Assembly: GCA_021904315.1 (NCBI GenBank)
Contig: CM038916.1
Coordinates: 7,591,065 to 7,655,064, forward strand
DNA from: Sphagnum magellanicum
Lineage: Eukaryota; Streptophyta; Sphagnopsida; Sphagnales; Sphagnaceae
Direction of reading: 5' to 3'
DNA: 64,000 nt
Part shown: positions 3,521 to 64,000 of the stretch, piece after piece
Position numbering within the stretch: position 1 is the stretch's first letter
Layout: the number at the start of each line of letters is the position of its first letter
Notes under the pieces: generated by a model
Database searches by the model: none
Told to the model about the DNA's origin: nothing
What the model saw: only the letters and a program-made list of their open reading frames with translations
Program-made: the position numbers and the translations under genes

Positions 3521-3559
3521 ATACCCTATCTATACCCAAAAATTTTATCCAAATAAAAA

Positions 3560-4450
3560 ATACATCCACACAACATTGGTGCATACAAATTAAGGAATGT
3601 AATGTTAATAAATGGTTCAACAATCTTTTCATTAATTGGATTTCCAATTGACAAATCAATCAACCCACATAAGATAAAACCATCCCACACTAATTGGACA
3701 AACATTAACCATCTAATTATAGATGAGGTATCAATGGTAGGTTGCAATATGCTTGTTGACATTCACTTAAAATTACAAACATTGAAAGAAAACATTCTTC
3801 TCTTTGGAGGTTTAAATATTATTTTCATGGTAGGTTTTCTATGGTTTCCATTAATCAATGATTGTCCCTTATGTTTTAACAATATAAAATTGGTTTTTTC
3901 ATTCACAAAACAAACCCCAAAAGAAGTGATAGGAAAAAATCTATGGGAAAACTATGTGTGTTTCAACAAAATAATATTGCCAAAGCAAATGAGGCAAGTT
4001 GAAGATGTGCATATTTTAACCTATTTGTAACAAGAAATTCAAAGGGGATGATTATAATTTTTTTCAAATGTGTTTTTTTGTCAACTTTGAAAATTAATTC
4101 CTTTTTAACACTTCATGGGATACAATTACATACATTATACCCCATAACAAATTAAGAAATGCAATGAAGCATTACATAATTAATCAAATTTTAACTAAAT
4201 AAAACCATGAATGCTACTCTATTTTAGCAAAAGAAATATATTAAAAAAACCTATTAGAGTTGATGTTGAATTCATGGTTAGACAAACCATTTCAAGGAAC
4301 AAAAATCATAATCTAGTTGCATTTAAAATTTGTACAAAAGCATGTGAGTAATATTAAAGAAAAACATATATATCCATTACTGAAATTGGTTAATGGTGTT
4401 GTTAGTGAAGTGCTTCAAATTGTGACCCCCATGGATGATCCAATAGGACA
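3560..4450 (+). pseudogene. PIF1/Helitron-type helicase relic
   Basis: A 142-codon open stretch (3602-4030) reads like the middle of a PIF1-family DNA helicase. It has a Walker B-like segment, IIDEVSMVG, then FGGLN where the family normally has an FGGD motif, and then LPKQMRQVEDVHI, which matches the conserved L-x-x-x-x-R segment that follows. Weak similarity seems to continue to about 4450. The Walker A part, the C-terminal helicase motifs and any Rep domain are not visible, so this is a fragment. PIF1-like helicases of this kind are carried by Helitrons in plants; a broken host PIF1 gene is less likely given the surroundings. Confidence 0.6.
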
Positions 4451-6061: not shown

Positions 6062-6118
6062 CACTTTAGTTTTTTGCTTATTTGATCATTTTGCTTGCAA
6101 AATGGGTTTACCGACTAG
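6062..6118 (+). mobile_element. Helitron 3' terminus (plus orientation)
   Basis: A 7-bp stem (CATTTTG / CAAAATG, 6087-6104, 4-nt loop) is followed 10 nt later by CTAG and a T. That is the standard Helitron 3' end: a hairpin, then CTRR, next to a target T. The preceding 55 bp nearly match the terminus at 11843, so both belong to one subfamily. The 5' end of this element was not found. Confidence 0.7.
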
Positions 6119-7289
6119 TTGGTAAACCCATTTTGCAAACAAAATGTTCAAGAGAAAGGATTGATAGGACCTTGAGAATTGTTTAATCAACAATTTTAAG
6201 TTGGGATAATTTTCGTTTGATGAGACAATAAGAATTTAGGAAGCATTTTATTTTCAACAGCCACACATCATGAACTTAGCTTTCGTTATAGCCATTTTTG
6301 CATCCAATGCAGGGAATTTCAACCCCGTGATTTGGATGTGGGAATTTCGACCCATCGAGAAAGAAAAACAAGCAAGAGATAGAGAAGAAAGATCATCGCA
6401 ACAATTCCATATAAACAACATTGGTCGTCATCATACCATTCAGGCAGAAAACAAAGATGTCATTCACACACATTGTTCGTGACAGAGTTACATACAATTG
6501 GCCATGGGTGAAGATAGGTTCAGGCAAGTAAATGCCAACAATTTTCATGGTTTGACCCTGCGCCTAGTTAATGGTCATAGCGAATGCCAATTGCAAGGGG
6601 AATTGGCGCCTTTGTAGGGTGAATGGCCACTTTAAATGGTTTGTTGTTATGGTGATGTACGGTATGTTGACAATATTCCCTGCATGCGCGCCACCAATGA
6701 TCTGCACGACAATCAATCTCCGTGCTAGGCACCAAATGATTAAACGGGTCCCATTACAAAGTTCTGAGGCCACATCGAGATTTCTTAGTAAGATAACAAG
6801 GACGCTAACTTTGAAAGCTAGGTGATGTGGTGGCATACCTGCCAGAGTAATGGTGTTGAGAAATTCTGTGCCAATCACCATAGCCTGGTCATCCCCCGTT
6901 TCCACCAAATCTGTGGACAAAAATACGTGCTCTTGCCCGGGCACAACCTCGACAATTTGAGTGTTGAAAGAGTTCACGACTATATTTTTTGTTGTCAGAA
7001 TAGCTCGATCGTCCATGTATCCTTGGTTTGTGTAATTGATTGTTAGGGCCGGGAAAACATCGTGGATGAGGGTCTCTAAAGATGGCGCTTCATGGATTTT
7101 CGAGTATAAGGCGATCTTGACTTCGATTGAAGGTTCTACGTCAACTTCCAGTGGAAAATGATCAATGATGGAAGATTCTTAGTCATTGTCGACTCTCAAA
7201 AGGTACTCAGCATACGGCCTGGAGAGGGGATCGGTGTGCAATCTCATGTTTTCTGTGAGAGTCAAGACGTGCATTTGACACCACAAAAC
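6115..7289 (-). mobile_element. Helitron 3' half, left arm of inverted pair
   Basis: Read on the minus strand, this segment carries the C-terminal half of a Helitron PIF1-like helicase, then a 3' tail ending in a hairpin (6129-6146) and CTAG (6115-6118). It is a close inverted copy of 9803-10976, about 90% identical by eye and almost equal in length. The inner edge stops exactly where the terminal-inverted-repeat element begins at 7290. The rolling-circle Rep domain and the 5' TC end are absent. Confidence 0.8.
6540..7280 (-). pseudogene. Helitron helicase C-terminal fragment
   Basis: An open stretch at 6564-7016 encodes the end of a PIF1-like helicase. LCNGTRLIIWCLARRLI and FPLQLAFAMTIN match the conserved N-G-T-R and F-x-L-x-x-A-x-A-x-T-I-N-K segments. 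The matching plus-strand copy at 10318-10698 carries on into KAQGQT and the Y-V-x-L-S-R motif, whereas this copy loses frame after TIN. Translation of 7016-7280 shows related but interrupted sequence. It is non-functional. Confidence 0.75.
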
Positions 7290-9429: not shown

Positions 9430-10698
9430 GATGAGATGGACATGTCGCCATCGGGGTTGCATTTTCCGGCATAGTAGCTCTCCTATTGGAAGGTGGACGA
9501 ACCGCACATTCAGTTTTCAAGATCCCAATTGCCCTTGGTAGGGATTCAATGTGTTCAATACATGTGCAAAGTGATTTTGCTGAGCTACTTCGGGAAGCAA
9601 AGTTGATCGTTTGGGATGAGGCTCCAACACAACACTGACATTGTGCCGAGGCAGTAGACCGAACTTTGCATGACATCATGTAGCGCCCAGATTCGCCCTT
9701 TGGCGATACAGTGGTTGTCTTTGGGGGTGATTTTTGACAATGTCCACTAGTGGTGTCCAAAAGCTCTCAGGCAACAATCGTTTCTGTAGCCCTTTCGCTT
9801 TCGGTTTTGTGGCGTCAAGTGCGCGTCTTGATTCTCACAGAAAAATGAGATTGCGCACCAATCCCCTTTCTAGGCCATATGCTAAGTACCTTCTAAAAGT
9901 CAGCAATGGCCAAGAGTCATTGATCATTGATCATTTTCCATCGAAAGTCGACGCAGAGCCTTCAATCGGAGTCGAGATCGCCTTATACCCGAAAATCCAT
10001 GAAGCGCCATCTTTAGAGACCCTCATCCACAATGTTTTCCCGACCCTAGCAATCAATTACACAAACCAAGGATACATGGATGGTCGAGCTATTCTAAAAA
10101 TAAAAAATACAGTCGTGAACTCTTTCAACACCCAAATTATCAAAGATGTGCTCGAGCAAGAGCATGTATTTTTGTTAGCAGACTTGGTGGAAACGGGGGA
10201 TGACTAGGCTATGGTGATTGGCACAGAATTTCTCAACGCCATTACTTTGGTAGGTATGCCACCACATCGTTTGGCCCTCAAAGTTGGCATCTTGTTATCT
10301 TATTAAGAAATCTCGATGTGGCCTCAGGACTTTGTAATGGGACCCGTCTAATCATTTGGCGCCTAGCACGGAGATTGATCATCGCGCAGATCATTGGTGG
10401 CGTGCATGCGGGGAATATTGTCAACATACCGCACATCACCACAACAATAAACCGTTTAAAGTGGCCATTCACCTTACAAAGGCGCCAATTCCCTTTGCAA
10501 TTGGCATTCGCTATGACCATTAACAAGGCGCAGGGTCAGACCATGAAAACTGTTAGCATTTACTTGCCTGATTCTGTCTTCACCCATGGCCAATTGTATG
10601 TAGTTCTGTCACGAACTATGCGTGTGAATGACATCTTTGTTTTCTGCTTGAATGGGAGGACGACGACCAATGTTGTTTATATGGAATTGTTGCGATGA
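9430..10698 (+). pseudogene. Helitron PIF1-like helicase relic
   Basis: Plus-strand frames together cover much of a Helitron helicase. LLLEGGRTAHSVFKIPI is the region after Walker A; AKLIVWDEAP is Walker B; VVVFGGDF follows; then comes a long central region; finally LCNGTRLIIW, FAMTINKAQGQTMKTVSIYL and HGQLYVVLSR form the C-terminal motifs. The frame changes at least twice and in-frame stops are present, so it is not functional. Walker A and the Rep domain are not seen. The 3' end of the element follows 278 bp downstream. Confidence 0.85.
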
Positions 10699-26287: not shown

Positions 26288-26532
26288 GTTTTCAACTTTT
26301 TTTTACTTCTTCTCCCTCGTCTCCTCGTCTCCTCCCTCTTGCAAATTTTTCTCTATTGCTTCTGCTGATGCTGCTGCTCCTTCTGTGTCTTCTTTTTGTC
26401 TGCGCTTTATGGGTCTTCTTCCTTCTTCGTCTTGAGCTTCGCCTGTTGTAATCTGCTTGCCTTCGTGGTGTTTGGTGGGGCTCTTCTTTTCTTTTCCTTT
26501 CTTTCCCTTACGTGCTAAGGTGGTGAGGAAGA

Positions 26533-27815
26533 ATGGCGGTGGAGACTCGAGAACAGAATGTGTACATGGCGAAGCTTGCGGAGCAGGCGGAGCGTTACGA
26601 TGAAATGGTGGAGGCCATGGAAAAGGTGGTGAAAACCGTGGACGTTGGGGAGCTTACTGTGGAGGAGCGGAATCTGCTCTCTGTGGCGTACAAGAATGTG
26701 ATCGGGGCCCGGAGGGCTTCTTGGAGGATCGTTTCGTCCATTGAACAGAAGGAGGAGAGTAAAGGGAACGAAGAGCATGTGGTGGCCATCAAAGAATACC
26801 GGAGCAAGGTGGAGCAGGAGTTGAGCGCCATCTGCGACAGTATTTTAAAGCTGCTTGATACGCATCTCATTCCGACCTCAACCACAGGGGAGTCCAAGGT
26901 TTTCTACTTGAAGATGAAGGGAGACTACCACCGATACCTTGCAGAGTTTAGGACCGGCGCTGAGAGAAAAGAGGCAGCGGAGAGCACATTAGTGGCGTAC
27001 AAGGCGGCTCAAGTAAGTTCCATTATCGTTTTTGTGCTTGCACATCAGATGCAAAGGGACATGATAAATAATGTAACTGTTCTTTCTGAACATCGGCTGT
27101 GAACCCTGCCTGCTATGCTGTTGCACTTAAGGTTGTGGAAAGTTGTGATCTTCTTCTTCAAATGCAGGATATTGCACTTACAGAATTGACTCCCACTCAC
27201 CCCATCAGATTGGGGTTGGCACTGAATTTCTCAGTATTCTACTATGAAATTCTGAACTCACCTGACCGGGCCTGCACTCTTGCAAAGCAGGTGTGTTGTC
27301 CAGACCTCCTTTTTTTCCTGTTCCTTGAGCAAGTTGGAAAAAACAAATTTGTATTGTGGTTAGTCTTGCAATCTCATGTTTCTTTCTTCAGACCAGCTTT
27401 GTAATAGCAACAGAAACTCTTGGTGTTTTTTCCTTCTTCAAGAAGATGCCCCTTTAGGAGGCATGTTAAAACAGGACACTCCTTGGGAATACAGGCATTC
27501 GATGAGGCTATTGCAGAGCTTGACACATTAGGGGAAGAATCTTACAAGGACAGCACTCTTATCATGCAATTGCTTCGGGATAACCTTACACTTTGGACGT
27601 CAGATATGCAGGTAAGCAGATGCTGCTGTACAGATATGTCTATTTGAACAATTCTGGATGTTCACTGATTAACAATTCCCTTCAATTTTGAAGCATTTTA
27701 GTAAAAAGAATGACAAATTTATTTTGTGGCTTCTGATTCTATCAAAAACTAGGAGGAGGCTGCTGAAGAACCAAGAGAGGGAGTGAGAGCTGAAGATGCA
27801 GCAGGTCAAAGCTGA
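26533..27815 (+). CDS. 14-3-3: 14-3-3 protein, 260 aa
   Basis: Four exons join in phase 0: 26533-27012, 27168-27290, 27495-27611 and 27753-27815, all GT-AG. The product is a phosphoserine/threonine-binding dimeric adaptor of the cytosol and nucleus that modulates H+-ATPase, nitrate reductase, transcription factors and other clients. Both family signatures are present: [20 protein letters not shown] near residue 46 and [20 protein letters not shown] near residue 217. The phosphopeptide pocket residues appear intact (K54, R61, R134, Y135). The short acidic tail ([20 protein letters not shown]) is variable, as usual. Length and exon layout fit a non-epsilon plant isoform; the paralogue cannot be named from here. 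It looks functional. Confidence 0.97.
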
Positions 27816-33290: not shown

Positions 33291-36200
33291 TTTCTTTCTT
33301 TCTTTCTTTTAATTTAACGTCAATACCCGGACCAGAGAGATCCACTTGACGACAATTACAAAGTTGACTTGAGCAAAACACTCCTGTTGTCTAGGCAAGA
33401 AACTAAGTACAAAGCTACCGCTTTCTGATTAGCCGAATGCATCAATTCAGGAAGTAAGCTGCACGGTGTCAATTGTTTCCCTAATTGTTGACTAAACTTG
33501 CAACGAATGTCATGGTGAGCTGGGCACACTAATAACAAGTGGTCTTCATCCTCAACAGCTCCTAGGGAACATAGACGACAAATCCTATCTCTCCTCGGGA
33601 CACTCTCAGGCTTTGCATGCCTGCCACACTCTACCTCCAAACGATGGTTTGAACATCTGAACCTTGACAAAGATTGCCTAAGCTGAACATTTGTGATCAC
33701 TTGCAAATACCTCTGATGTGCATATGAGTATCCAGATTCTATTGTACAGCTTGTGTTCATCAGCTGGTATGTACGTAATTTGCTACTTTTGGTTCTGGCC
33801 TGTTCACCATAAGTGGATTCTAGGTAAGAAGCCTGTGCCCTTGCTATAGCACACTTGATATTAGCATAGAGAACTTCAACACCTTGGTCTTTAAGCCACA
33901 ACTGCACGTTCCGGAGCCAACATTGTTGGTTATCATTGAGCATGCTGAGCATCTGGATCTGGGTCTGGTAGGCACAGTACAACAGACGATCTGCTGTGGA
34001 TTTCCGTAATCTATCATAATACTTGAGAGTTTGTTGCCACCAAAAATATTCTAATGGATACCTTCCAAACTCCCCCAACACAACAAAAGTGCTTGTTGTT
34101 TTATTGACCCCTAATATTCCTCTCAGGAACATTCTATGTACTTGTTCTGCTTGTTGCAACCCTTTCGCCCCTGTACAACCTGTCCACACCTCGCATGCAT
34201 AGCTCAGTACTGGGCATACCAGTGAGTCGAACAACTGACACATTACTTCCGGATCTGTTATGCTCAGATCATTGCATCTGCGGCGTAATGCAAACAGTGC
34301 CTTCTTCCCAGCAGCAGTCAATTTGGCTATGGCTACTGTCATGCCTGTTGTACTATGTAACTCTAAGCCCAAGTATCTGAATGATTGAACCCGCTCAATG
34401 GTTGTCCTTGTGTATGTGAACTCTGGCGCTACACTGCGGTGTTTCTCAAACACCACCACCTTGGTCTTGCTCACATTGATGACCAATTGTCGGTCAACAC
34501 AAAACTCAGACAAAGCATTTATTTGTTTCTGCAACCCTTGTGGGGTTTCTGACATCAATGCCAGATCATTGGCATACAACAGTAATTTGACTATTATGTC
34601 TGCCAGCTGTGGCGGGCTGTCGCCCTCAAGTGCATCTAGATGTTTCTCAAGTCCATCAAGGTAGAGTCCAAAAAGCAGTGAACTCAGTGGACAGCCTTGT
34701 TTGACCCCAATGCCACATGGGAACCGGGCTGATAGCCCTTCTGTTGGATGCATAACTCTAACGTTATCCTGGCTATACATGCTCTGTAGACACTGCATGA
34801 AGCGACCCACAATTCCCATCTCATCTAACACTTGCCATAGCAGATCACGGGGCACTGTATCAAAAGCTTTGCGGAAGTCCACAAAACAGCAGTACACCTT
34901 TTTGCGTTTGTGAATGCTTTGTTCAATGAGTGTTCGCAAAATGTACAGGTTATCCGTGGTGCGGAAATCTTTCCTAAAACCAGCCTGTCCCCTGGCACGT
35001 AGGCCCCTCTCTTCTGCCCAGCTGCTCAACCGTGCCTCAAGAATCATGGCAAACACCTTAGCCAATACAGGACCCACTGTGAATCCCCTGTAGTTTTCAA
35101 ATTGCAAGGTATCACCACCCTTGTGCAATGCATGAATGACTCCAGTAGACAAGCTTGCTGAGTAACCTTGTTGCAACAACTTGTTGAATACAATCTGTAG
35201 TGGCACGTGTAACATATCACCAGCATCAAGTAGAAACTCTGCTTTGATGCCATCTAAGCCAGCAGACTTGTTACGTTTGAGTCTCCTCATCACTTGTGCA
35301 ATCTCATCCAAGGTTATGTCATAGTTTAACGTGCTGCAAGCATCACTCGCAAAAGGGTGTGACAAGTTCAAGACCACCTGATTTGTAGAGCTACCCTGTG
35401 CCCCAGCTGGATTACTGGGGCATTGTCCTTCCAGTAGCTTCTGGAAGCCAGTAACCAAGTCTGTTTTGCTGATAGCAATGGATCGCTCCTTGGTCTTGGA
35501 GTATTGCCTCCAGAAGCTGGCTGGATTTGTCTTTGCTAGTGCACACAACTGTCGCCCTTGCAGCTTCTTGTACGTGCGTTTCTTACAACGCAGTAGTTGT
35601 TTAAGTTGCTTCCTCCATTCGCGTGCTAGATGGCTATTAGGATGAAGCTTTGCATATGTAGATACTTCCTTGTGCTTGCTACGACATTCAGTGTCAAACC
35701 ATGGTTGATGACGATGTTGTGTTGTACTAGTGCGTGCCACAGGGCAGCCATGCACATCTGTAGCGACGTTACAAATGAAATCATGCAACAACTGCACGGC
35801 CATGTCCACATTGTTTGTGTCACTCATCTGTGCTGTGCACTGGGCAATCTGTTGCTGTAAGTGTTGACAAGATTGTGTGCACTTGCTAGCATCATATTTG
35901 AAACGACGGATGTCTGCACGAGAGTCTGAAATTGTGGGTGACACATGTTGCCAAGGTAACTGTAAGTTGAGTGAAAGTGGCCTGTGGTCGGAATCACCCC
36001 CTTTTCCACAGAATAGAGGGCATTTATGTACCACAAGTGATGTGGCACAATCAAACAGAGCAGGTGATGCGACCATATAATCCACAAGGCTGGAGCCGCC
36101 ATTGGCAAGGCAAGTGCATTCCCCTGATACATCGCCTGTGATCCTGCCATTGAGAATGAACAATCCCGAGGAGCTACAAAGGTCTAAGAACTCATTGTGC

Positions 36201-36850
36201 CAACCTTTCAACCCCCCCTTGTCCGAGTTATGTCGCTTAGGCAAAACCTCCGGGAAGTCATTCCCTAATGGCAGTGTGTCAGGTATGTGCTCTGTAAAGT
36301 AACGACAATCAACATAGTCGTCAGCTGCACTAGTCCTTGCATTGAAATCACCAGTGAGTAAAATACTGCCCCCAAGGTCCTGAATCATGCCGACCTCTGC
36401 AGCAATGTTATCAAACAAGCCTTCATTAGCATATGGGGATCCTTTGGGTGGAGCATATACTACAGCCAAAAACAACGGTGCAGCCCCCGAACGTTGGAAC
36501 TGTAGCCACAATCTGGTGCCATCTGTGCTCTGTTTCCATAAGGATACACAATCTGACCAAGAGTCATTTACAAATACTACAACACCACCACTATGCTTCA
36601 CTATTGCTCTGACTGAGCTCATGTCAAATACAGGGCGTGGATTGTGTAAACACTGAAAACCAGGCATCTGCAGTATCCACACTCTGAACACGAAAACAAA
36701 TCAATCAGTTCCAATCTAAACAGTCTAGACACTTTCACCAAAGAAACTGGTTCACCTAATATGAAACTGGTTTTGAGAAGGTAAAACTTCCAAAAGTTGG
36801 ATCCAATGCGATAGTCCTTGCCCCTATGGGGGTAGGGCCCAATAAACTAA
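33291..36850 (-). mobile_element. LINE retrotransposon with long open ORF
   Basis: The element reads on the minus strand. A leader of about 160 bp (36850-36692) is followed by a 3.3 kb ORF, a short 3' UTR (33355-33320) and a (GAAA)n tail (33310-33291). A very short 3' UTR with a simple-repeat tail is typical of RTE-like LINEs, but the clade cannot be settled by eye. No ORF1 is present, and the endonuclease lacks its first strands, so the element is probably 5'-truncated or rearranged. Its composition is richer in GC than its surroundings, suggesting recent insertion. No target-site duplication was identified. Confidence 0.85.
33356..36691 (-). CDS. LINE endonuclease/reverse transcriptase, 1,111 aa
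   Basis: One uninterrupted frame encodes three parts. Residues ~1-245 are an AP-type endonuclease lacking its N-terminal WN and E motifs but retaining LTGDFNART, SLVDYMVAS and GGDSDHRPL. Residues ~440-760 are a reverse transcriptase: SAGLDGIKAEFL, NYRGFTVGPVLAKVF, AGFRKDFRTTDNL, CCFVDFRKAFDTV, GVKQGCPLSSLLFGL, SKTKVVVF and FRYLGLEL. The C-terminus has a CCHC-type knuckle (RICRLCSLGAVEDEDHLLLVC). The catalytic Y-A-D-D box reads LLLYANDLAL: the first Asp is Asn (codon AAT), consistent with a C-to-T change at a methylated CpG. That residue binds catalytic metal, so the enzyme is probably inactive although the frame is open. The first in-frame Met used here may lie inside an originally longer ORF. 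Confidence 0.9.
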   Translation of the reverse strand: MFRVWILQMPGFQCLHNPRPVFDMSSVRAIVKHSGGVVVFVNDSWSDCVSLWKQSTDGTRLWLQFQRSGAAPLFLAVVYAPPKGSPYANEGLFDNIAAEVGMIQDLGGSILLTGDFNARTSAADDYVDCRYFTEHIPDTLPLGNDFPEVLPKRHNSDKGGLKGWHNEFLDLCSSSGLFILNGRITGDVSGECTCLANGGSSLVDYMVASPALFDCATSLVVHKCPLFCGKGGDSDHRPLSLNLQLPWQHVSPTISDSRADIRRFKYDASKCTQSCQHLQQQIAQCTAQMSDTNNVDMAVQLLHDFICNVATDVHGCPVARTSTTQHRHQPWFDTECRSKHKEVSTYAKLHPNSHLAREWRKQLKQLLRCKKRTYKKLQGRQLCALAKTNPASFWRQYSKTKERSIAISKTDLVTGFQKLLEGQCPSNPAGAQGSSTNQVVLNLSHPFASDACSTLNYDITLDEIAQVMRRLKRNKSAGLDGIKAEFLLDAGDMLHVPLQIVFNKLLQQGYSASLSTGVIHALHKGGDTLQFENYRGFTVGPVLAKVFAMILEARLSSWAEERGLRARGQAGFRKDFRTTDNLYILRTLIEQSIHKRKKVYCCFVDFRKAFDTVPRDLLWQVLDEMGIVGRFMQCLQSMYSQDNVRVMHPTEGLSARFPCGIGVKQGCPLSSLLFGLYLDGLEKHLDALEGDSPPQLADIIVKLLLYANDLALMSETPQGLQKQINALSEFCVDRQLVINVSKTKVVVFEKHRSVAPEFTYTRTTIERVQSFRYLGLELHSTTGMTVAIAKLTAAGKKALFALRRRCNDLSITDPEVMCQLFDSLVCPVLSYACEVWTGCTGAKGLQQAEQVHRMFLRGILGVNKTTSTFVVLGEFGRYPLEYFWWQQTLKYYDRLRKSTADRLLYCAYQTQIQMLSMLNDNQQCWLRNVQLWLKDQGVEVLYANIKCAIARAQASYLESTYGEQARTKSSKLRTYQLMNTSCTIESGYSYAHQRYLQVITNVQLRQSLSRFRCSNHRLEVECGRHAKPESVPRRDRICRLCSLGAVEDEDHLLLVCPAHHDIRCKFSQQLGKQLTPCSLLPELMHSANQKAVALYLVSCLDNRSVLLKSTL

Positions 36851-49079: not shown

Positions 49080-49530
49080 CCTACCCAACATTGGTATAGC
49101 TTTTTCCACAATGTAAAAATGTAGAAGTTTTGGGTCACATTGAACCTGCACCCACCAGTTTACCATGAAGGATGGGTTATAAATGATCTAAAGCAGCTTC
49201 CTGTTCTGTTCCAGTTCCTTAGTTGCTAACCATGGTGGTTAGCTCAGTTGCTTTTTTTTTTCCCTACCTACCTACTGACAACCTGCTTGTGGGTTGTTAG
49301 TAGGTAGGTACTAGGAAAAACAGCCCTTACATATGTATAAACCATCTACTTACCAAATAGTGACCTAATTTCCTACCTACTTACCTATGTATGAGACCTA
49401 TTTCCTACAGAACTGGTTACCAAGGCGAAACCAAATATGAACTCAGTTTAGGTTCATCTACAACTGAGTAACAATGGGCATCCAGTGGATGGTGCACTGG
49501 TGGGTGCTGGTTCACTGTGGCCAAGGTTTT
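49080..49530 (+). repeat. Dispersed inverted-end family, copy with hairpin
   Basis: It includes a foldback at about 49263-49312 (CCTACCTACTGACAACC against GGTTGTTAGTAGGTAGG), CTACCTAC words, ACTCAGTTTAGGTTCATC and the right end GGATGGTGCACTGGTGGGTG followed by CTGGTTCACTGTGGCC. Confidence 0.6.
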
Positions 49531-52029: not shown

Positions 52030-52250
52030 CTAATCTAGGTAAAGGCTGCTTTTACTACCTTCCTACTAAGAACCTGCTAGCAGCAAGTGGCAGGTTCTTA
52101 GTAGGTAGGTAGTAAAAAGACCAACTGAGCTAACCACCATGGTTAGCTTAGGGAACTGGAACCCAGAAGAAGACCCTTGCAGCCTGAGCACTAACTACCA
52201 TCCATCTTCATGGTGCACTAGTGCGTGCTGCTGCACTCTGTCCCTGTTCA
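52030..52250 (+). repeat. Dispersed inverted-end family, copy with hairpin
   Basis: A foldback at about 52044-52112 pairs TTTTACTACCTTCCTACTAA with TTAGTAGGTAGGTAGTAAAA. It is followed by CTAACCACCATGGTTAGC, ACCATCCATCTTCATGG and the right end TGCACTAGTGCGTGCTGCTG. Confidence 0.6.
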
Positions 52251-52740: not shown

Positions 52741-52904
52741 CTGTCCATAAATAACGGGCTGTGATCCAGCAGCAGCGTAGGTAATGTTTTTGTTACGTAA
52801 TAAAAGTAAGTACTTCCAAGGCCACAGCTCCTGTATCTATCCCGCCCGCCTTGCCTAGTCCCTATTTCCCTTTTCTGGACGCACTAGAGAAGCGCCACCA
52901 ATTG

Positions 52905-52914
52905 CTATTTATAC
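52905..52914 (+). promoter_or_regulatory. TATA-like box
   Basis: CTATTTATAC stands in otherwise GC-balanced sequence, about 360 bp upstream of the miRNA-like hairpin. Confidence 0.4.
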
Positions 52915-53267
52915 GCTACTTCTAGCTCAATATCCTCATCATTCGGTGTTGCATGTCATTGTATGTCTGCTGCGCTCTCATGTTCTGCCTTCCTTTTCGT
53001 CTTCTGCATACTGTGCTTGTATTTCATGTTAGGCTGCTGTGATTACAACACATTGTGCAACTTGAACTCAGTACATCTGCTAGTGTCTCGAAGTTGGTAT
53101 TGGGTAGAAGTGGCGTTGAGAGTTCGGGAATCTCCATGAGTGTTTTTGCTGATCGTCTGTGGACGTTTGTGATCTAGTTTGTGAGTCGATGGACTTGAAT
53201 AGGCATGCGGATTTGCAAGATATATCATTTGAGGACAGGTGTTCGGTCCGTTGTTTTGGCGTAAGGC

Positions 53268-53341
53268 GGTGGGAATGCCTATAACGGCCTGTCAACACTT
53301 ACTATTGTATGTGTTGACGGGTCGTGATGGGCACTCCCAAC
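53268..53341 (+). ncRNA. miRNA-precursor-like hairpin
   Basis: The arm 53268-53301 pairs with 53308-53341 around a 6-nt loop (CTATTG). I count 30 of 34 positions paired, including three G-U pairs, with four isolated mismatches and no bulges. A weaker stem extends outward by about 15 bp with wobble pairs. Few scattered mismatches in a stem longer than 30 bp fit plant MIR rules. Either arm could yield a 21-nt product; I do not recognise the sequence as a known family. A young foldback from an inverted duplication is the main alternative. Confidence 0.45.
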
Positions 53342-54670
53342 GTCTAGCGTTATGGTCATCTTCCGGGCCTCGGGTTGCCTGCCTTCTATCAGGCCCTGAT
53401 AACGCAGGAAAGTGTTCGAAGAACGTTGGCCACTGAGGTGTTTGTAGTCCTTCTGCTTCTGAAGGGAATTCTGTCGCCAGTAGAAATGCATCTTTCCGCT
53501 AGCTGAATCATTTATCAGACTTCCGTTCAAGTATTGTTCTTGCTTTCCAACTTCGTGCTATAGTCTATCTCACCCACTAGATTTACCGATGCTGGGTGTT
53601 GTAGTGTGCTCGAGGAATCGTTTGGTGCGTGTTGCCTTGCTTTGTTGACTCCTTGATAGAAGCTATCCAGATTCTGAATGATTACCAGGAATGTGCGGTC
53701 GTAGGGATACCACTTGTATAGTTAAGCGGTGGGATTGGTAATTGAATCTTAATATTCGTGAAGATTGGATCTAAACATCAATTGAATTGTAGTTTCATAT
53801 GCAGCTGACAGTGGGCATTGTTCGTATATGTTAGGGAAAATTGGATCGTACAAAAATGTCCTAATTTGGGTTGTCAACGGCCTCTAATCTAAGTAGTTTA
53901 GTGGGAGCCACTGACGTATTGTCTCGTTTTGTGCTACAGTTATAGTCGCTGTCCATTGGTCGATTTTTACTCTCAGCTCTTTCAGCTCCTGCAATAGTTG
54001 AAAGCTTGACCGGTGAGTGCAGCGAGGTGGAGAGACGTCCAAAGCAGCTGTGAAAGACCGATCACAGCGGCCTGATGGAAGGATGTCTTTTAGCTTTTTT
54101 TCTGCATGACGGTTATGTAATTTACTTGGGCCTTGATTACAGGTTCATCTGCCTGGTTTTTCATAACAATGTTATTGAGCTCCAGCTATAATGTATGCTC
54201 CAGCTATATCTTTTCTCTTCTAGACTGCATCAAATTATTACCGCATTTTATCACTTAACCACTGACGTAAGGGACGATCTTAATGGTAAACCGAACATTA
54301 AAATGTGTCATTTCACGTTCATTGTTATTACGACTACTGCCATCTGATTATTTAGCTGTTGTGACGTAACTCATTGGTCAAGACTAGTGTGTTTAAAACA
54401 TTGGATGTTTACTGATAGAATTTATAACGATAATAATTATGATTATGCTCTTTAACATCAACCATTGTCAGTTGATTATTGCAAACATTCATGAAATCAT
54501 CAATTGTAATCTTCGATGTCCATGTAATTGAAACACCGTTTTCAACATCAGGTTAAAAGTAGAACTTAAAAGAAAAGGATCCGATTTGATTTTTCCAACA
54601 AAATGTTTTCTATTTAATGTTTTTTTTTCAATTGTTTCGTTACATTAAAAGTAACGATTTGAAAATGTCG

Positions 54671-54826
54671 TTGAACCAGATTAAATGAAGACAGATTAGA
54701 AAAGAAATCGGTTATTTTGGACATCTACAAAGCAAATTGCATTTGTTGAATTGAACCAGATTAAATGAAGGCAGATTAGAAAAGTAATCAATTATTTCGG
54801 ACATCTACAAAGCAAATTGCATCCAT
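54671..54826. repeat. Tandem duplication, 80-bp unit
   Basis: Units start at 54671 and 54751 with TTGAACCAGATTAAATGAAG and share ACATCTACAAAGCAAATTGC. They differ at several sites. Confidence 0.9.
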
Positions 54827-59795: not shown

Positions 59796-60105
59796 TGTTA
59801 ACAAATAGGAGATCTATTCAAGTGCAAACCTAAATCTTTATTGAAAGGAAACTACAACATGATGTTCACAACACGAAACATAACATTAATAACTCCTCAA
59901 GGTTCTTGTCACATGAAATACACAAACTTGTGTAATGAAGAAAAGAGAGCCAAACCATCAACATCAAGGTATTTAACTAAAAGACCAAACCGCAAATAAC
60001 CTAAATATAAGTAAAGAAAGTAATTCAACCTTGTGAAAGTAACCTAGTTATTTTCCTATTCCAGTAACTAATGAAACCTAACTAGTTGAGCTTGAATTCT
60101 CAACA
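59796..60105 (-). repeat. Copia 3' LTR, 310 bp
   Basis: On the minus strand the LTR starts TGTTGAGAATTC directly after a GAAGGGGAG tract and ends TTAACA. It has an AATAAAG poly(A)-type signal near its end. The flanking plus-strand bases at 59791-59795 (ACCAT) are the candidate target-site duplication; the partner is outside the window. Confidence 0.8.
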
Positions 60106-63100
60106 CTCCCCTTCAAGCTCAAATCCACTTCTAGTACACCAAGCATTTTTCTAAACTTCCTTAACTTGTCTATACCTAAAGCCTTTGTGAAAATGTCAAC
60201 AACTTGATATTCGGTATTAACATAAATAAAGTCAATTTCTTTTGCTAGAATTTTTTCATTAATAAAGTGGTAGTGCACCTCAATGTGTTTTGTCCTAACA
60301 TGATAGACCGAGTTGTTAGCAAATAGTATGCTACTGATGTTATCACAATAAATGACAATAGGAGCATCCATTGATTGTCCCAAATTTGATAGTAATTTTT
60401 GTAACCAAAATACTTCACATGTAACAATTGTTGCACCTTTGTATTATGCCTCCGTGTTTGATAGTGCAACTGTTGGTTGTTTCTTACTGCTCCAACTAAC
60501 AACACCACTTCCAGAAGAAAACATGAAACCACTATTCGATCTTTTATCTGAAACATTACTAGCCCAATTAGCATCCGTGTATCCATGTACTTGTAACTGG
60601 CTTTTGGTTTCATAAAAAATTCCACACTATAATGTATGTTTTATGTTCCTCAATATGCGCCTCACTACATCTAAATGTCGCTTTCGTGGTGTTTACATGA
60701 ATTGACTCACCACTCCAACAACATAACTCAAATCTGGCCTTGTGATGGTCATGTAAATCAAATTCCCCACTATGCGTTTGTACATAGTGGTATCTTCCAC
60801 AAGATCTCCTTCATCTGCATTTAACTTCACATTTTGCTCCAATGGAATTGAAATGGGTTTGTAACCCGTCATCCCATATTCGGTCAATTTGTTCAAGGCA
60901 TATTGCCTTTGTAGTAACCATATCCCTTTAGGGGACTGGATTACTTCAATGCTGAGGAAGTAATGCAACTCTCCCAAATATTTCATCTTAAACTTTTGCT
61001 TCAAAAGCTTCTTCAAATCAAAGATGTCTGCATCACTATCTCATGTGATAATCAAATCATCAACATAGATGACTATGACTACAATCCCATGATTTGTCTT
61101 TTTCACATATAGTGAAAAATCTGCATTGGATGTTTGAAATCCACTTGTGACAAGATATTAACCTATCTTGTCTGACCAAATTCTAAGTGCTTGCTTCAAG
61201 CCATACAAAGTTTTTTCAACCTACAAACCAAATTAAGATGTGTTTGGTCCACATAACCTGGTGGTTGTTCCATGTACACTTCTTCTTGTAAATATCCATG
61301 AAGAAAAACATTTTTTACATCCATTTGATGTAAAGACCATCCTTTTGTTGTTGCCATAGCAATGATTGCTCTTATAGTTGTCATTTTGGCAACTGGACTA
61401 TAGGTCTCTTCACAGTTTATGCCATAAGTTTGGGCATAACCTTTGGCAACCAATCTTGTTTTGTATCTACTCACAGATCCATCTACATTGTGTTTGACTT
61501 TGTACACCCATTTGCACCCAATTGTTTTCTTGTCCTCTAGTAAAACTACCAATTCCTAAGTAGCATTAACATCCAAAGCCGTCATCTTTTCATCCATGGC
61601 ATTGTCCCACTTAAGGTTTCCAACCGCTTATTCAAAAAAAGTGGGTTCAACCTCCTATATAACTTTCACCATGTGTGTATAATGATGAGCTACAAAGCCA
61701 TCATATGTGAGTCTTTGTACAAGGTACTTGACTTGTGTGGATCTTCGTACTCCACTATTGCTATCAGGTGTTTTCAAAACTTTCTTGGCCATCCGAGCTC
61801 CATGAGTAATAACTGAAGGGATTCTTGATTCTTCACCCATACTCTTCTCTAAATCATTTGACTCATCATCTACATGAGGATTTATAGATGATGTTTGAAA
61901 ACTACCATGTACAATGTTTGAATATCTTAATCTTCCTTTCCATGGAGTGCTATTCGACCCACTAATTGAAGACTCTTGTGGTCCACTGATTAATTGTGAT
62001 TCTTATTCCACATTTGATCAAACATCACCATTTCTAGCTTCTCCATCTTTTGCTACCTTTAGTGGTGAGTACTAGCTAACCACCTCATCAAACACAACAT
62101 CTCTAATCACTTGCAACTTTTGAATGGAAGGATTGAAACATCTATATCCTTTTTGTTCTAAGGAATATCCAATGAAAATACATTTTTCAACTTTTGGGTC
62201 TAGTTTTGATCTTTTCTCATCAGGAACATGCATGTATGCAATGCAACCAAACATTCTAAGGTGTGAGACATCTGGTTTCTTGCTTGTGAATTTTTCTTCA
62301 GGTGTCATGCCATGAACTGTTGTTGTGGGTGTTTGATTCATGATATAGACTGCAGTTGTTACCACTTTAGCCCAAAAGTAATTTGACAAATTATTCTCAT
62401 TCAACATGGCACGTGTTATTTCTATAATGTGCCTATTTTTCCTTTCAGCAACTCCATTCTACTATGGGGAATAACTACATGAGTACTTCCTTTGAATTCC
62501 ATGTTCCTTCAAGTACTTGCTGAATTCATTTGAAAAATATTTTCCCCCACCATCGAACCTTAAGCACTTGATGTTCACACCCTTCTCCTTCTCCACCATT
62601 GCTTTGAAATTCAAAAAATGTTGGAACACTTCACCTTTGTGTTTCATGAAGTAGACCCACACCTTCCTTGTGTGGTCATTAATGAAATTCACGTAGTACA
62701 TGCATCCTCTAATGGATTTTGTCTTCGTGGTCCACACATCTGAATGGATCATTTCCAAAGGTTTGGAACTTACATGAGTTGTTTGTGCTAGGAATGGATG
62801 TTTAGCTTACTTCCCCAATTGGCATGTTTCACAAACTTCTAACATCACCTCTTCTGTTCCAAATTTGGGAAGGCCTCCAACAAGATTATATTTCTCCATC
62901 AGCTTAAGACGTTGAAGATTAACATGGCCAACCCACTTGTGCCAAATTCCAATGTTTCCAGCTCCTTTTCCATGTGTGAATAACATGGAATTCACCTCAG
63001 GCATGTTCACGTCTAAGGTGAACATTCATCCATTCCTTTCCCCTTTTGCAATCAATTTGCCTTGGTTCTTCATGTCTTCCACAAAACATCCATTTGGGTT

Positions 63101-64000
63101 GAATGTCATTTATAAACCTTGTTCCACCATTTGGCCTACGGAAACCAAATTTTTTGTTATGGTTGGAACATGAAGTACATCTTTCAAGTACTTTGTTTGC
63201 CCATCTTGCATGGACAATGGCACCTTGCCAATTTTTGTGATGGGATGTGTAGTGTCATCACCAGTTTCCACAAACCCCAATGTCTTCAAATCCTTTGTGT
63301 CTCTAAACCATTCTCCATGACTAGTCATGTGGTTTGAAGCTCCAGATCCACATACCAGACATTGTTGTTTGATACATCTCCTATCATTGAATTTGCCATG
63401 TGCTGCATCACAAATAGTTGTTCATCACCTTGATTGCTAGTTGATGCATAATTCCCTTGTTGTAACTTTGCATTTTGTGCATCATGCTCCCTTTGATAAC
63501 AATTCTTCGCCATGTGCCCAGGTTTCTCGCAATGGTAGCAATTTGAATCACTATTTGGTTGGTGACCTCAATGACTTCCACCACAACCTCCACGACTTCC
63601 TCGACTTCCTTTTCCTCCAAAGTTTCCTCATCCACCTCCATGAGCTTGACCTTCATGTTAATGATGTCCACCATGCGAACTTCCGTGTCGACCTCGAAAT
63701 GAAATTTTACCATTTCTACCTCTACCTCTATTAGTATTTGAGTAGAAAACACTTTCTTGTGCTCCTCCATTGGATAAAGTACCAACAATTCTCATCTCTT
63801 CACTTATAAGTAGTGTTATTTAATCTTGGAAATTGGGAAATGTTTCTCAAAGTGCAATTGAAGTACGAAATTGGTTATAGTCTTTTCCAAGTCCATTCAA
63901 GGTGATGGCCACTAAATCTTCATCATCTATAAGAACTCCTATAGATGCAAAAGCATCTGCAAGGTTTTTCACCTTTATAGAATAGTCATTGATGTTCATC
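59796..64000 (-). mobile_element. Ty1/Copia retrotransposon fossil (3' part)
   Basis: Read on the minus strand from the right edge of the window: a gag zinc knuckle (near 63530), protease-like region, integrase zinc-binding (about 63025) and core (62760-62070), reverse transcriptase (about 61550-60700), RNase H (about 60380-60080), polypurine tract (60106-60116) and 3' LTR (59796-60105). The domain order is that of Copia. It is broken, with several breaks in pol, but much better preserved than the Gypsy fossils, so it is younger. The 5' LTR lies beyond the window. It sits inside a Gypsy integrase region. Confidence 0.92.

What the first reader, a model, noticed from the sequence alone, without database searches (positions are those of the whole stretch)
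53268..53341. Possible undescribed miRNA precursor
A 34-bp stem with a 6-nt loop and only four isolated mismatches lies in a low-copy region, behind a TATA-like box and without an ORF. The few scattered mismatches resemble a plant MIR stem. I do not recognise the arm sequences as a conserved miRNA family.
Basis: partly seen in the sequence, partly recalled or inferred. Interest (0 to 1): 0.7.

Follow-up and report, generated by a model that had tools for sequence, protein, structure and literature searches.

The report
Peat-moss copy of microRNA gene MIR1033
The hairpin is very probably a microRNA gene, but of a family already known from another moss; this moss, probably a peat moss, carries three copies with nearly unchanged arms and a shared promoter-like block, which suggests an old regulatory job whose target is still unknown.

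Summary
The hairpin is real and is more than chance: 34 opposed positions with exactly four mismatches, z = -8.9 as + strand RNA. It does not belong to an unknown family. All 82 positions of Rfam RF03297 (MIR1033, whose named members are from Physcomitrella) match at 65.7 bits, E 5e-14, just under the curated cut-off of 70. The 3' arm agrees with the consensus at 33 of 34 bases. Three other foldbacks of this window reach at best 24.5-42.6 bits against any family. In the genome, probably Sphagnum divinum, searches found three copies, on contigs 10, 11 and 15. Their 34-nt 3' arms are identical, the 5' arms vary at two positions, the loops have diverged, and no flank similarity extends past the stem. 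A TATA block starts 359, 396 and 618 nt upstream on the sense strand (0 of 300 shuffles as good). This fits a conserved MIR gene, perhaps kept after genome duplication, and speaks against a MITE. Expression, mature RNA and target are untested; I found no convincing target site.

The parts
53257..53352 (+). Whole foldback (pre-miRNA hairpin), homologue of MIR1033
   Evidence: MFE structure of the 105-nt segment, -63.6 kcal/mol; Rfam RF03297 1-82/82 at 53262-53347 +, 65.7 bits, E 5e-14, gathering 70
53264..53297 (+). 5' arm (34 nt); two positions vary among the three paralogues, both remaining opposite G on the sense strand as C-G or U-G
53298..53311 (+). Terminal part with the loop, diverged among the paralogues (14, 16 and 14 nt)
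53312..53345 (+). 3' arm (34 nt), identical in the three paralogues and 33/34 identical to the Rfam MIR1033 consensus; probable mature-miRNA arm (inferred)
53315..53335 (+). Candidate mature 21-mer UGACGGGUCGUGAUGGGCACU (register inferred, not shown)
   Evidence: 5' U, and 2-nt 3' overhangs with the candidate star below (pairing); exact copies found only in the three hairpins
53276..53296 (+). Candidate star strand UGCCUAUAACGGCCUGUCAAC (inferred)
   Evidence: 2-nt offset partner of the above; one mismatch in each of the two paralogues
52905..52928 (+). Conserved TATA core-promoter-like block CTATTTATACGCTACTTCTAGCTC upstream of the hairpin
   Evidence: 16 of 24 columns invariant in the three paralogues, 0 of 300 shuffles as good; its degenerate form is rare genome-wide
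52940..53352 (+). Inferred minimum extent of the primary transcript, from about 30 nt after TATA through the hairpin; 3' end unknown
   Evidence: inference from the TATA position; no transcript data

Best explanation
This is a MIR gene homologous to the moss MIR1033 family, one of three paralogues found in a peat-moss (probably Sphagnum divinum) genome. RNA polymerase II would start about 30 nt downstream of the TATA block at 52905-52928 and make a non-coding primary transcript (inferred). That transcript folds into the 53257-53352 hairpin (fold computed). A DCL1-type enzyme would cut it into a duplex of about 21 nt, with the 3' arm loaded as the miRNA; my guess is 53315-53335, but the register is not shown. 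It would silence mRNAs by pairing (inferred; target unknown). The three copies most likely descend from the Sphagnum genome duplications (partly supported). Selection appears to have kept both arms while loop, flanks and transcript body drifted (inferred from the pattern of identity).
For: Full-length Rfam RF03297 match in 3 of 3 copies (65.7, 66.5, 61.7 bits); no other locus at E <= 10 in the genome among the 56 of 41,410 first-look candidates that were scored. 3' arm 33/34 identical to the family consensus in each copy. Internal controls: three other near-perfect foldbacks of the window score at best 42.6, 31.7 and 24.5 bits against any Rfam family, and unrelated families score at most 39.9 on this hairpin, so about 40 bits can come from hairpin shape. 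Paralogues: 3' arm 0 differences of 34 in three pairs, 5' arm 1, 1 and 2 of 34, loop diverged, flank similarity not extending past the stem. Both variable 5'-arm positions pair in all copies only if the + strand is the RNA (U-G or C-G), and the sense strand folds better in all three (-63.6/-64.2/-64.4 against -44.4/-39.3/-57.7 kcal/mol). A TATA block is conserved on the same strand, 0 of 300 shuffles as good. Copies lie on C10, C11 and C15; chromosomes 4, 10, 11 and 15 of Sphagnum are assigned to one ancestral chromosome (PMC9946827, passages), and a 14-3-3 paralogue lies about 40 kb from the C11 hairpin against about 26 kb in the window.
Against: Score is below Rfam's gathering cut-off (65.7 against 70), so a standard gathering scan misses it; at E <= 10 the same model also rings weakly, under the cut-off, in 3 of 14 control genomes, all three bacterial. 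No small-RNA or transcript data. No covariation with changes on both sides (0 pairs, shuffles equal the observed score), so conservation of sequence carries the argument. No convincing target: at up to 3 mismatches, two registers of the 3' arm give 2 and 1 places outside the hairpins against 4 and 7 for reversed controls. A third register gives 15 against 3, but 12 of the 15 have one repeat-like form; a 5'-arm register gives 1 against 0. Synteny is only partial: the 14-3-3 gene lies on the other side of the hairpin on C11 and 1.8 Mb away on C15, and a chalcone-synthase-type gene 81 kb downstream has no close relative near the other two hairpins. The invariant stretch of 34 nt is longer than one 21-mer explains.
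Confidence: 0.87

Rival explanations
1. A low-copy MITE or other foldback DNA transposon remnant: three insertions of a short palindromic element, its arms being terminal inverted repeats.
For: Sharp similarity borders at the stem ends; the region does hold a MITE-like foldback 1.2 kb upstream with at least 40 places in the genome.
Against: Only three copies found; loops diverged while arms are nearly identical, whereas neutral MITE copies diverge evenly; no target-site duplication above chance (best flanking direct repeats 4, 3 and 4 nt; 371, 490 and 346 of 500 random places are as good); TATA block conserved outside the palindrome on the sense strand; arm sequence shared with a moss MIR family in Rfam.
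Confidence: 0.05
2. An inverted-repeat siRNA locus: the long stem is diced into mixed small RNAs by DCL3/DCL4-like enzymes rather than into one miRNA. Rfam's MIR1033 would be the same kind of locus in Physcomitrella.
For: Both arms are conserved over 34 nt, not only over 21 nt; long stem with few mismatches.
Against: The 3' arm is more conserved than the 5' arm (0 against 2 variable positions), as expected for one functional strand, though the numbers are small; the family is filed as miRNA in Rfam.
Confidence: 0.07
3. A chance palindrome or pseudogenised hairpin with no present function.
For: No expression data; below the Rfam gathering cut-off.
Against: Fold z-score -8.9; three paralogues with near-identical arms beside diverged loops; 33/34 arm identity to a described family.
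Confidence: 0.01

Closest known systems
Rfam RF03297, MIR1033 microRNA precursor family (members ppt-miR1033a-e of Physcomitrella patens are named in PMC10094499, passage)
   Same: Full-length match 1-82/82, better on the sense strand (65.7 against 49.4 bits), 3' arm 33/34 identical to the consensus
   Different: 5' arm only 28 of 40 identical to the consensus in the window copy; score below the curated cut-off; another moss; three loci found, against five member names in that paper
Short foldback DNA elements (MITEs), e.g. the foldback at 52035-52135 in this window
   Same: Short palindrome, similarity ends at the stem
   Different: The MITE-like element has at least 40 places, the 39 others 78-82% identical; this hairpin has 3 found, with arms held and loops diverged, and no target-site duplication above chance

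Membership tests
MIR1033 (Rfam RF03297) | Same hairpin over the full model length | tested here: met
   1-82/82 in 3 of 3 copies
MIR1033 (Rfam RF03297) | Near-identical sequence of the conserved 3' arm | tested here: met
   33 of 34 bases identical to the consensus in each of 3 copies
MIR1033 (Rfam RF03297) | Rfam curated gathering score of 70 bits (a curators' annotation threshold, not a biological trait) | tested here: not met
   65.7, 66.5 and 61.7 bits; three other foldbacks of this window reach at most 42.6. I therefore call it a homologue of MIR1033 by arm sequence, not an Rfam-listed member
MIR1033 (Rfam RF03297) | Same mature small RNA excised from the same arm | not testable with these tools
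   No small-RNA reads and no miRBase here; which stretch is the mature miR1033 was not seen in any call
Plant MIRNA gene (criteria as recalled: Axtell and Meyers 2018) | Stem-loop with a miRNA/star duplex of at most 5 mismatches and no large bulge | tested here: met
   Four mismatches, all single and symmetric, in 34 positions
Plant MIRNA gene (criteria as recalled: Axtell and Meyers 2018) | Precise excision of a 20-22-nt miRNA and its star shown by small-RNA sequencing | not testable with these tools
   Needs small-RNA libraries
Plant MIRNA gene (criteria as recalled: Axtell and Meyers 2018) | Independent transcription unit (usual, not required) | tested here: inconclusive
   Conserved TATA block upstream on the sense strand; no transcript seen
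MITE | Many dispersed copies | tested here: not met
   3 places found in 439 Mb
MITE | Target-site duplication at the ends | tested here: not met
   Best flanking direct repeats of 4, 3 and 4 nt within 8 nt of the stem ends; 371, 490 and 346 of 500 random places are as good

The most novel reading that the evidence does not exclude
miR1033 is not a Physcomitrella oddity but an old moss regulator, present in both Sphagnopsida and Bryopsida. Its whole 34-nt 3' arm, longer than one miRNA, is under selection, for example because overlapping or phase-shifted small RNAs are made from it, or because it pairs with a target over more than 21 nt.
Probability: 0.3. Interest if true: 0.55.

Novelty: new member of a known kind. 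Interest (0 to 1): 0.38.

Why it matters
If Sphagnum and Physcomitrella share MIR1033, the family was probably present before two deeply separated moss lineages parted, and it was kept in three copies. Both point to an important but unknown target. The invariant 34-nt arm and the TATA block conserved between paralogues make function, register and promoter directly testable. The case also shows that a gathering-threshold Rfam scan can miss a moss miRNA gene, while lowering the threshold lets a MITE-like hairpin in at about 40 bits.

Tried and rejected
Rfam at gathering score found nothing in the window; only the relaxed search showed MIR1033. Other families that matched the hairpin (mir-3927 39.9 bits, MIR5274 34.3, MIR4371 27.3; mir-433 17) were rejected, because three other foldbacks of the window score 24.5-42.6 bits against unrelated families.

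MITE: rejected on copy number, on the arm/loop contrast and on the absence of a target-site duplication. Coding origin: all 5 frames of 60 aa or more overlapping the hairpin, and one just upstream (52888-53139), gave no Pfam match; searches with the 3' arm (E <= 10) and the whole hairpin (E <= 0.001) found no founder gene with extended similarity.

Targets: four patterns of 21 nt and one of 27 nt at up to 3 mismatches. Places outside the three hairpins against reversed controls: 2 against 4 (its sixth row is the C15 hairpin's own other arm), 15 against 3, 1 against 0, 1 against 7, 0 against 0. Of the 15, 12 have the form TGARGGGCRCTCCCRACTTCY. I read 4 of these 12: they share flanks and lie outside open frames over 90 aa. 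Of the other three, one (L019) overlaps a 113-aa frame on the strand that would not carry the target site. G-U-tolerant target searches were not run; I judged them too unspecific.

Covariation: none with changes on both sides, so not used as support. Synteny with sequence around the other two copies could be examined over only 9.8 kb each (L004, L005). Apart from the hairpin itself they gave only weak matches to 194 kb of C10 that look like dispersed repeats.

Literature: ten searches. PMC10094499 (passages) names ppt-miR1033a-e as predicted regulators of one C2H2 gene of Syntrichia. PMC4618736 (passage) counts MIR1033 among families with one conserved member in Panax notoginseng roots, by comparison with miRBase; I did not see the sequence and could not check this claim of a flowering-plant member. 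PMC9946827, PMC11333200, PMC5569507, PMC3565333 and PMC13120521 were seen as passages only; PMC1838911 was searched for terms and held none.

Full report
Observation. The computed stem continues outwards to 53257-53352. The surrounding 171 nt fold at -84.2 kcal/mol as + strand RNA, z -8.88, 0 of 200 shuffles as good; the - strand gives -57.6, z -5.63. Three other 34-position foldbacks with four or fewer mismatches exist on the + strand of the window, at 6081-6152, 49252-49323 and 52047-52120. The shape alone is therefore uncommon but not decisive. The 5 frames of 60 aa or more that overlap the hairpin match nothing in Pfam.

Which genome. The window lies on contig 10 of a 438,994,042-base assembly of 31 contigs. 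S. divinum was reported at 439 Mb with 20 chromosomes (PMC9946827, passages). Here contig 20 has 4.72 Mb and contig 21 only 0.23 Mb. The paper gives 5.4 Mb for chromosome 20 of S. divinum, which does not fit exactly. I take S. divinum (or a near relative) as likely, not shown; that contig numbers equal chromosome numbers is an assumption.

Copies. The whole hairpin has three places in the genome: the window, C11:5936772-5936855 (-) and C15:8685242-8685323 (-), at 93% over about 82 nt. A covariance search with RF03297 finds the same three and no other locus at E <= 10, with 56 of 41,410 first-look candidates scored; such counts are lower bounds. At that loose limit the model also rings, under its cut-off, in 3 of 14 control genomes, all three bacterial. 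The 34-nt 3' arm is identical in all three copies. The 5' arm differs at one, one and two positions of 34, the terminal part (14, 16, 14 nt) has diverged, and similarity does not extend past the stem. Such a contrast is expected of an old gene family held by selection on the arms, not of recent mobile copies. The foldback at 52035-52135, only 1.2 kb away, is the opposite case: at least 40 places, the 39 others 78-82% identical over nearly the whole element. The three hairpins also lack a target-site duplication above chance.

Family. A relaxed Rfam search gave RF03297, MIR1033, over all 82 model positions: 65.7 bits, E 1.4e-13 in 301 bases and 5e-14 in 111 bases, against a gathering score of 70. 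The other two copies score 66.5 and 61.7 bits. The 3' arm matches the consensus at 33 of 34 bases in each copy; the 5' arm matches at 27-29 of 40. As a control, the best scores of the other three window foldbacks against any Rfam family are 42.6, 31.7 and 24.5 bits. About 40 bits can thus come from hairpin shape alone, and the remaining 20 or so come from sequence. I conclude homology with MIR1033. Members ppt-miR1033a-e are named in PMC10094499 (passage); that the family was thought to be Physcomitrella-specific is recall. One paper lists a MIR1033 member in Panax roots (PMC4618736, passage), which I could not check.

Strand and promoter. The sense strand folds better in all three copies (-63.6, -64.2, -64.4 against -44.4, -39.3, -57.7 kcal/mol), and the two variable arm positions pair in every copy only in sense RNA (C-G or U-G). 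Comparing the flanks showed a second shared block on the sense strand. A script that looked for the best three-way 24-mer in 800 nt upstream returned it: CTATTTATACGCTACTTCTAGCTC (window 52905-52928), TCATTTATACCCTATTCGAAGCAC and TTATTTATACCCTACTTGAAGCTC, starting 359, 396 and 618 nt before the hairpin arm. It has 16 of 24 invariant columns; 300 shuffles gave at most 14. A degenerate form made from the three has only three other genomic places within 2 mismatches, as many as its reversed control, so it does not look like a general promoter motif. I read it as the TATA core promoter of the primary transcript (inference). One search found no pair changed on both sides, and its shuffles equal the observed covariation, so covariation adds nothing.

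Origin of the copies. In Sphagnum, chromosomes 4, 10, 11 and 15 are assigned to one ancestral chromosome, and two genome duplications are dated 189-247 and 102-122 Ma (PMC9946827, passages). The three hairpins are on C10, C11 and C15. A 14-3-3 gene of the window (26533-27102) has relatives on C15 (90% identity), C11 (86%) and C4 (88%), and also on C6, C18 and C12; the C11 one lies about 40 kb from the C11 hairpin, against about 26 kb in the window. Against a simple picture: it lies on the other side of that hairpin, the C15 one is 1.8 Mb away, and a chalcone-synthase-type gene 81 kb downstream (Pfam) has its closest relatives on C4 and at C11:10.12 Mb, 4.2 Mb from the C11 hairpin. Genome duplication with later rearrangement is likely, not proved.

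How it works. By analogy with plant MIR genes (established knowledge): Pol II transcript, DCL1-type cutting, one strand in AGO1, cleavage of target mRNAs. My best guess for the duplex is UGACGGGUCGUGAUGGGCACU (53315-53335) with UGCCUAUAACGGCCUGUCAAC (53276-53296), which have 5' U and 2-nt 3' overhangs. The register is not shown, and conservation of 34 nt rather than 21 leaves room for other or several products. Target searches at up to 3 mismatches gave nothing convincing (counts in Tried and rejected). The only target statement I saw is a prediction for a C2H2 gene in Syntrichia (PMC10094499, passage).

Verdict. A very probable miRNA precursor, homologous to a known moss family, in a moss for which my ten paper searches listed no report of it. 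It is a new member of a known kind. Interest is moderate: deep conservation, three copies and an unknown target.

Noticed in passing
window 52035-52135: MITE-like foldback (arms 28 nt, 96% complementary) with at least 40 genomic places; it scores 42.6 bits against the animal family mir-3116, a false lead for relaxed Rfam scans.
   Followed up: yes
window 6081-6152 and 49252-49323: Two more near-perfect foldbacks with only weak Rfam scores (best 31.7 and 24.5 bits); copy number not checked.
   Followed up: partly
window 33356-36700 (-): Open LINE-type ORF of 1114 aa with an RVT_1 domain; parts of a similar copy appear in the ORF list near C10:7718207-7720314 (by eye).
   Followed up: no
window 3557-4030, 6564-7178, 9731-10698: Fragments that look Helitron-like by eye; the first matches PIF1 helicase in Pfam just below cut-off, part of the last (9737-10207) had no Pfam match, the second was not scanned.
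   Followed up: no
window about 60080-63790 (-): Run of minus-strand ORFs that look like a Ty1/copia-type element (recognised by eye; not scanned).
   Followed up: no
window 54671-54742 and 54751-54822: 72-nt direct repeat at 80-nt spacing, 93% identical, 1.3 kb downstream of the hairpin.
   Followed up: no
L018, L020, L022, L024 (centre): Repeat carrying TGARGGGCRCTCCCRACTTCY, 12 places, resembling the outer 3' arm at 3 mismatches; 4 of the 12 were read; its relation to the hairpin is unexplained, probably chance.
   Followed up: partly
window 26527-27102 (+): 14-3-3 protein gene with close relatives on contigs 15, 11, 6, 4, 18 and 12.
   Followed up: partly
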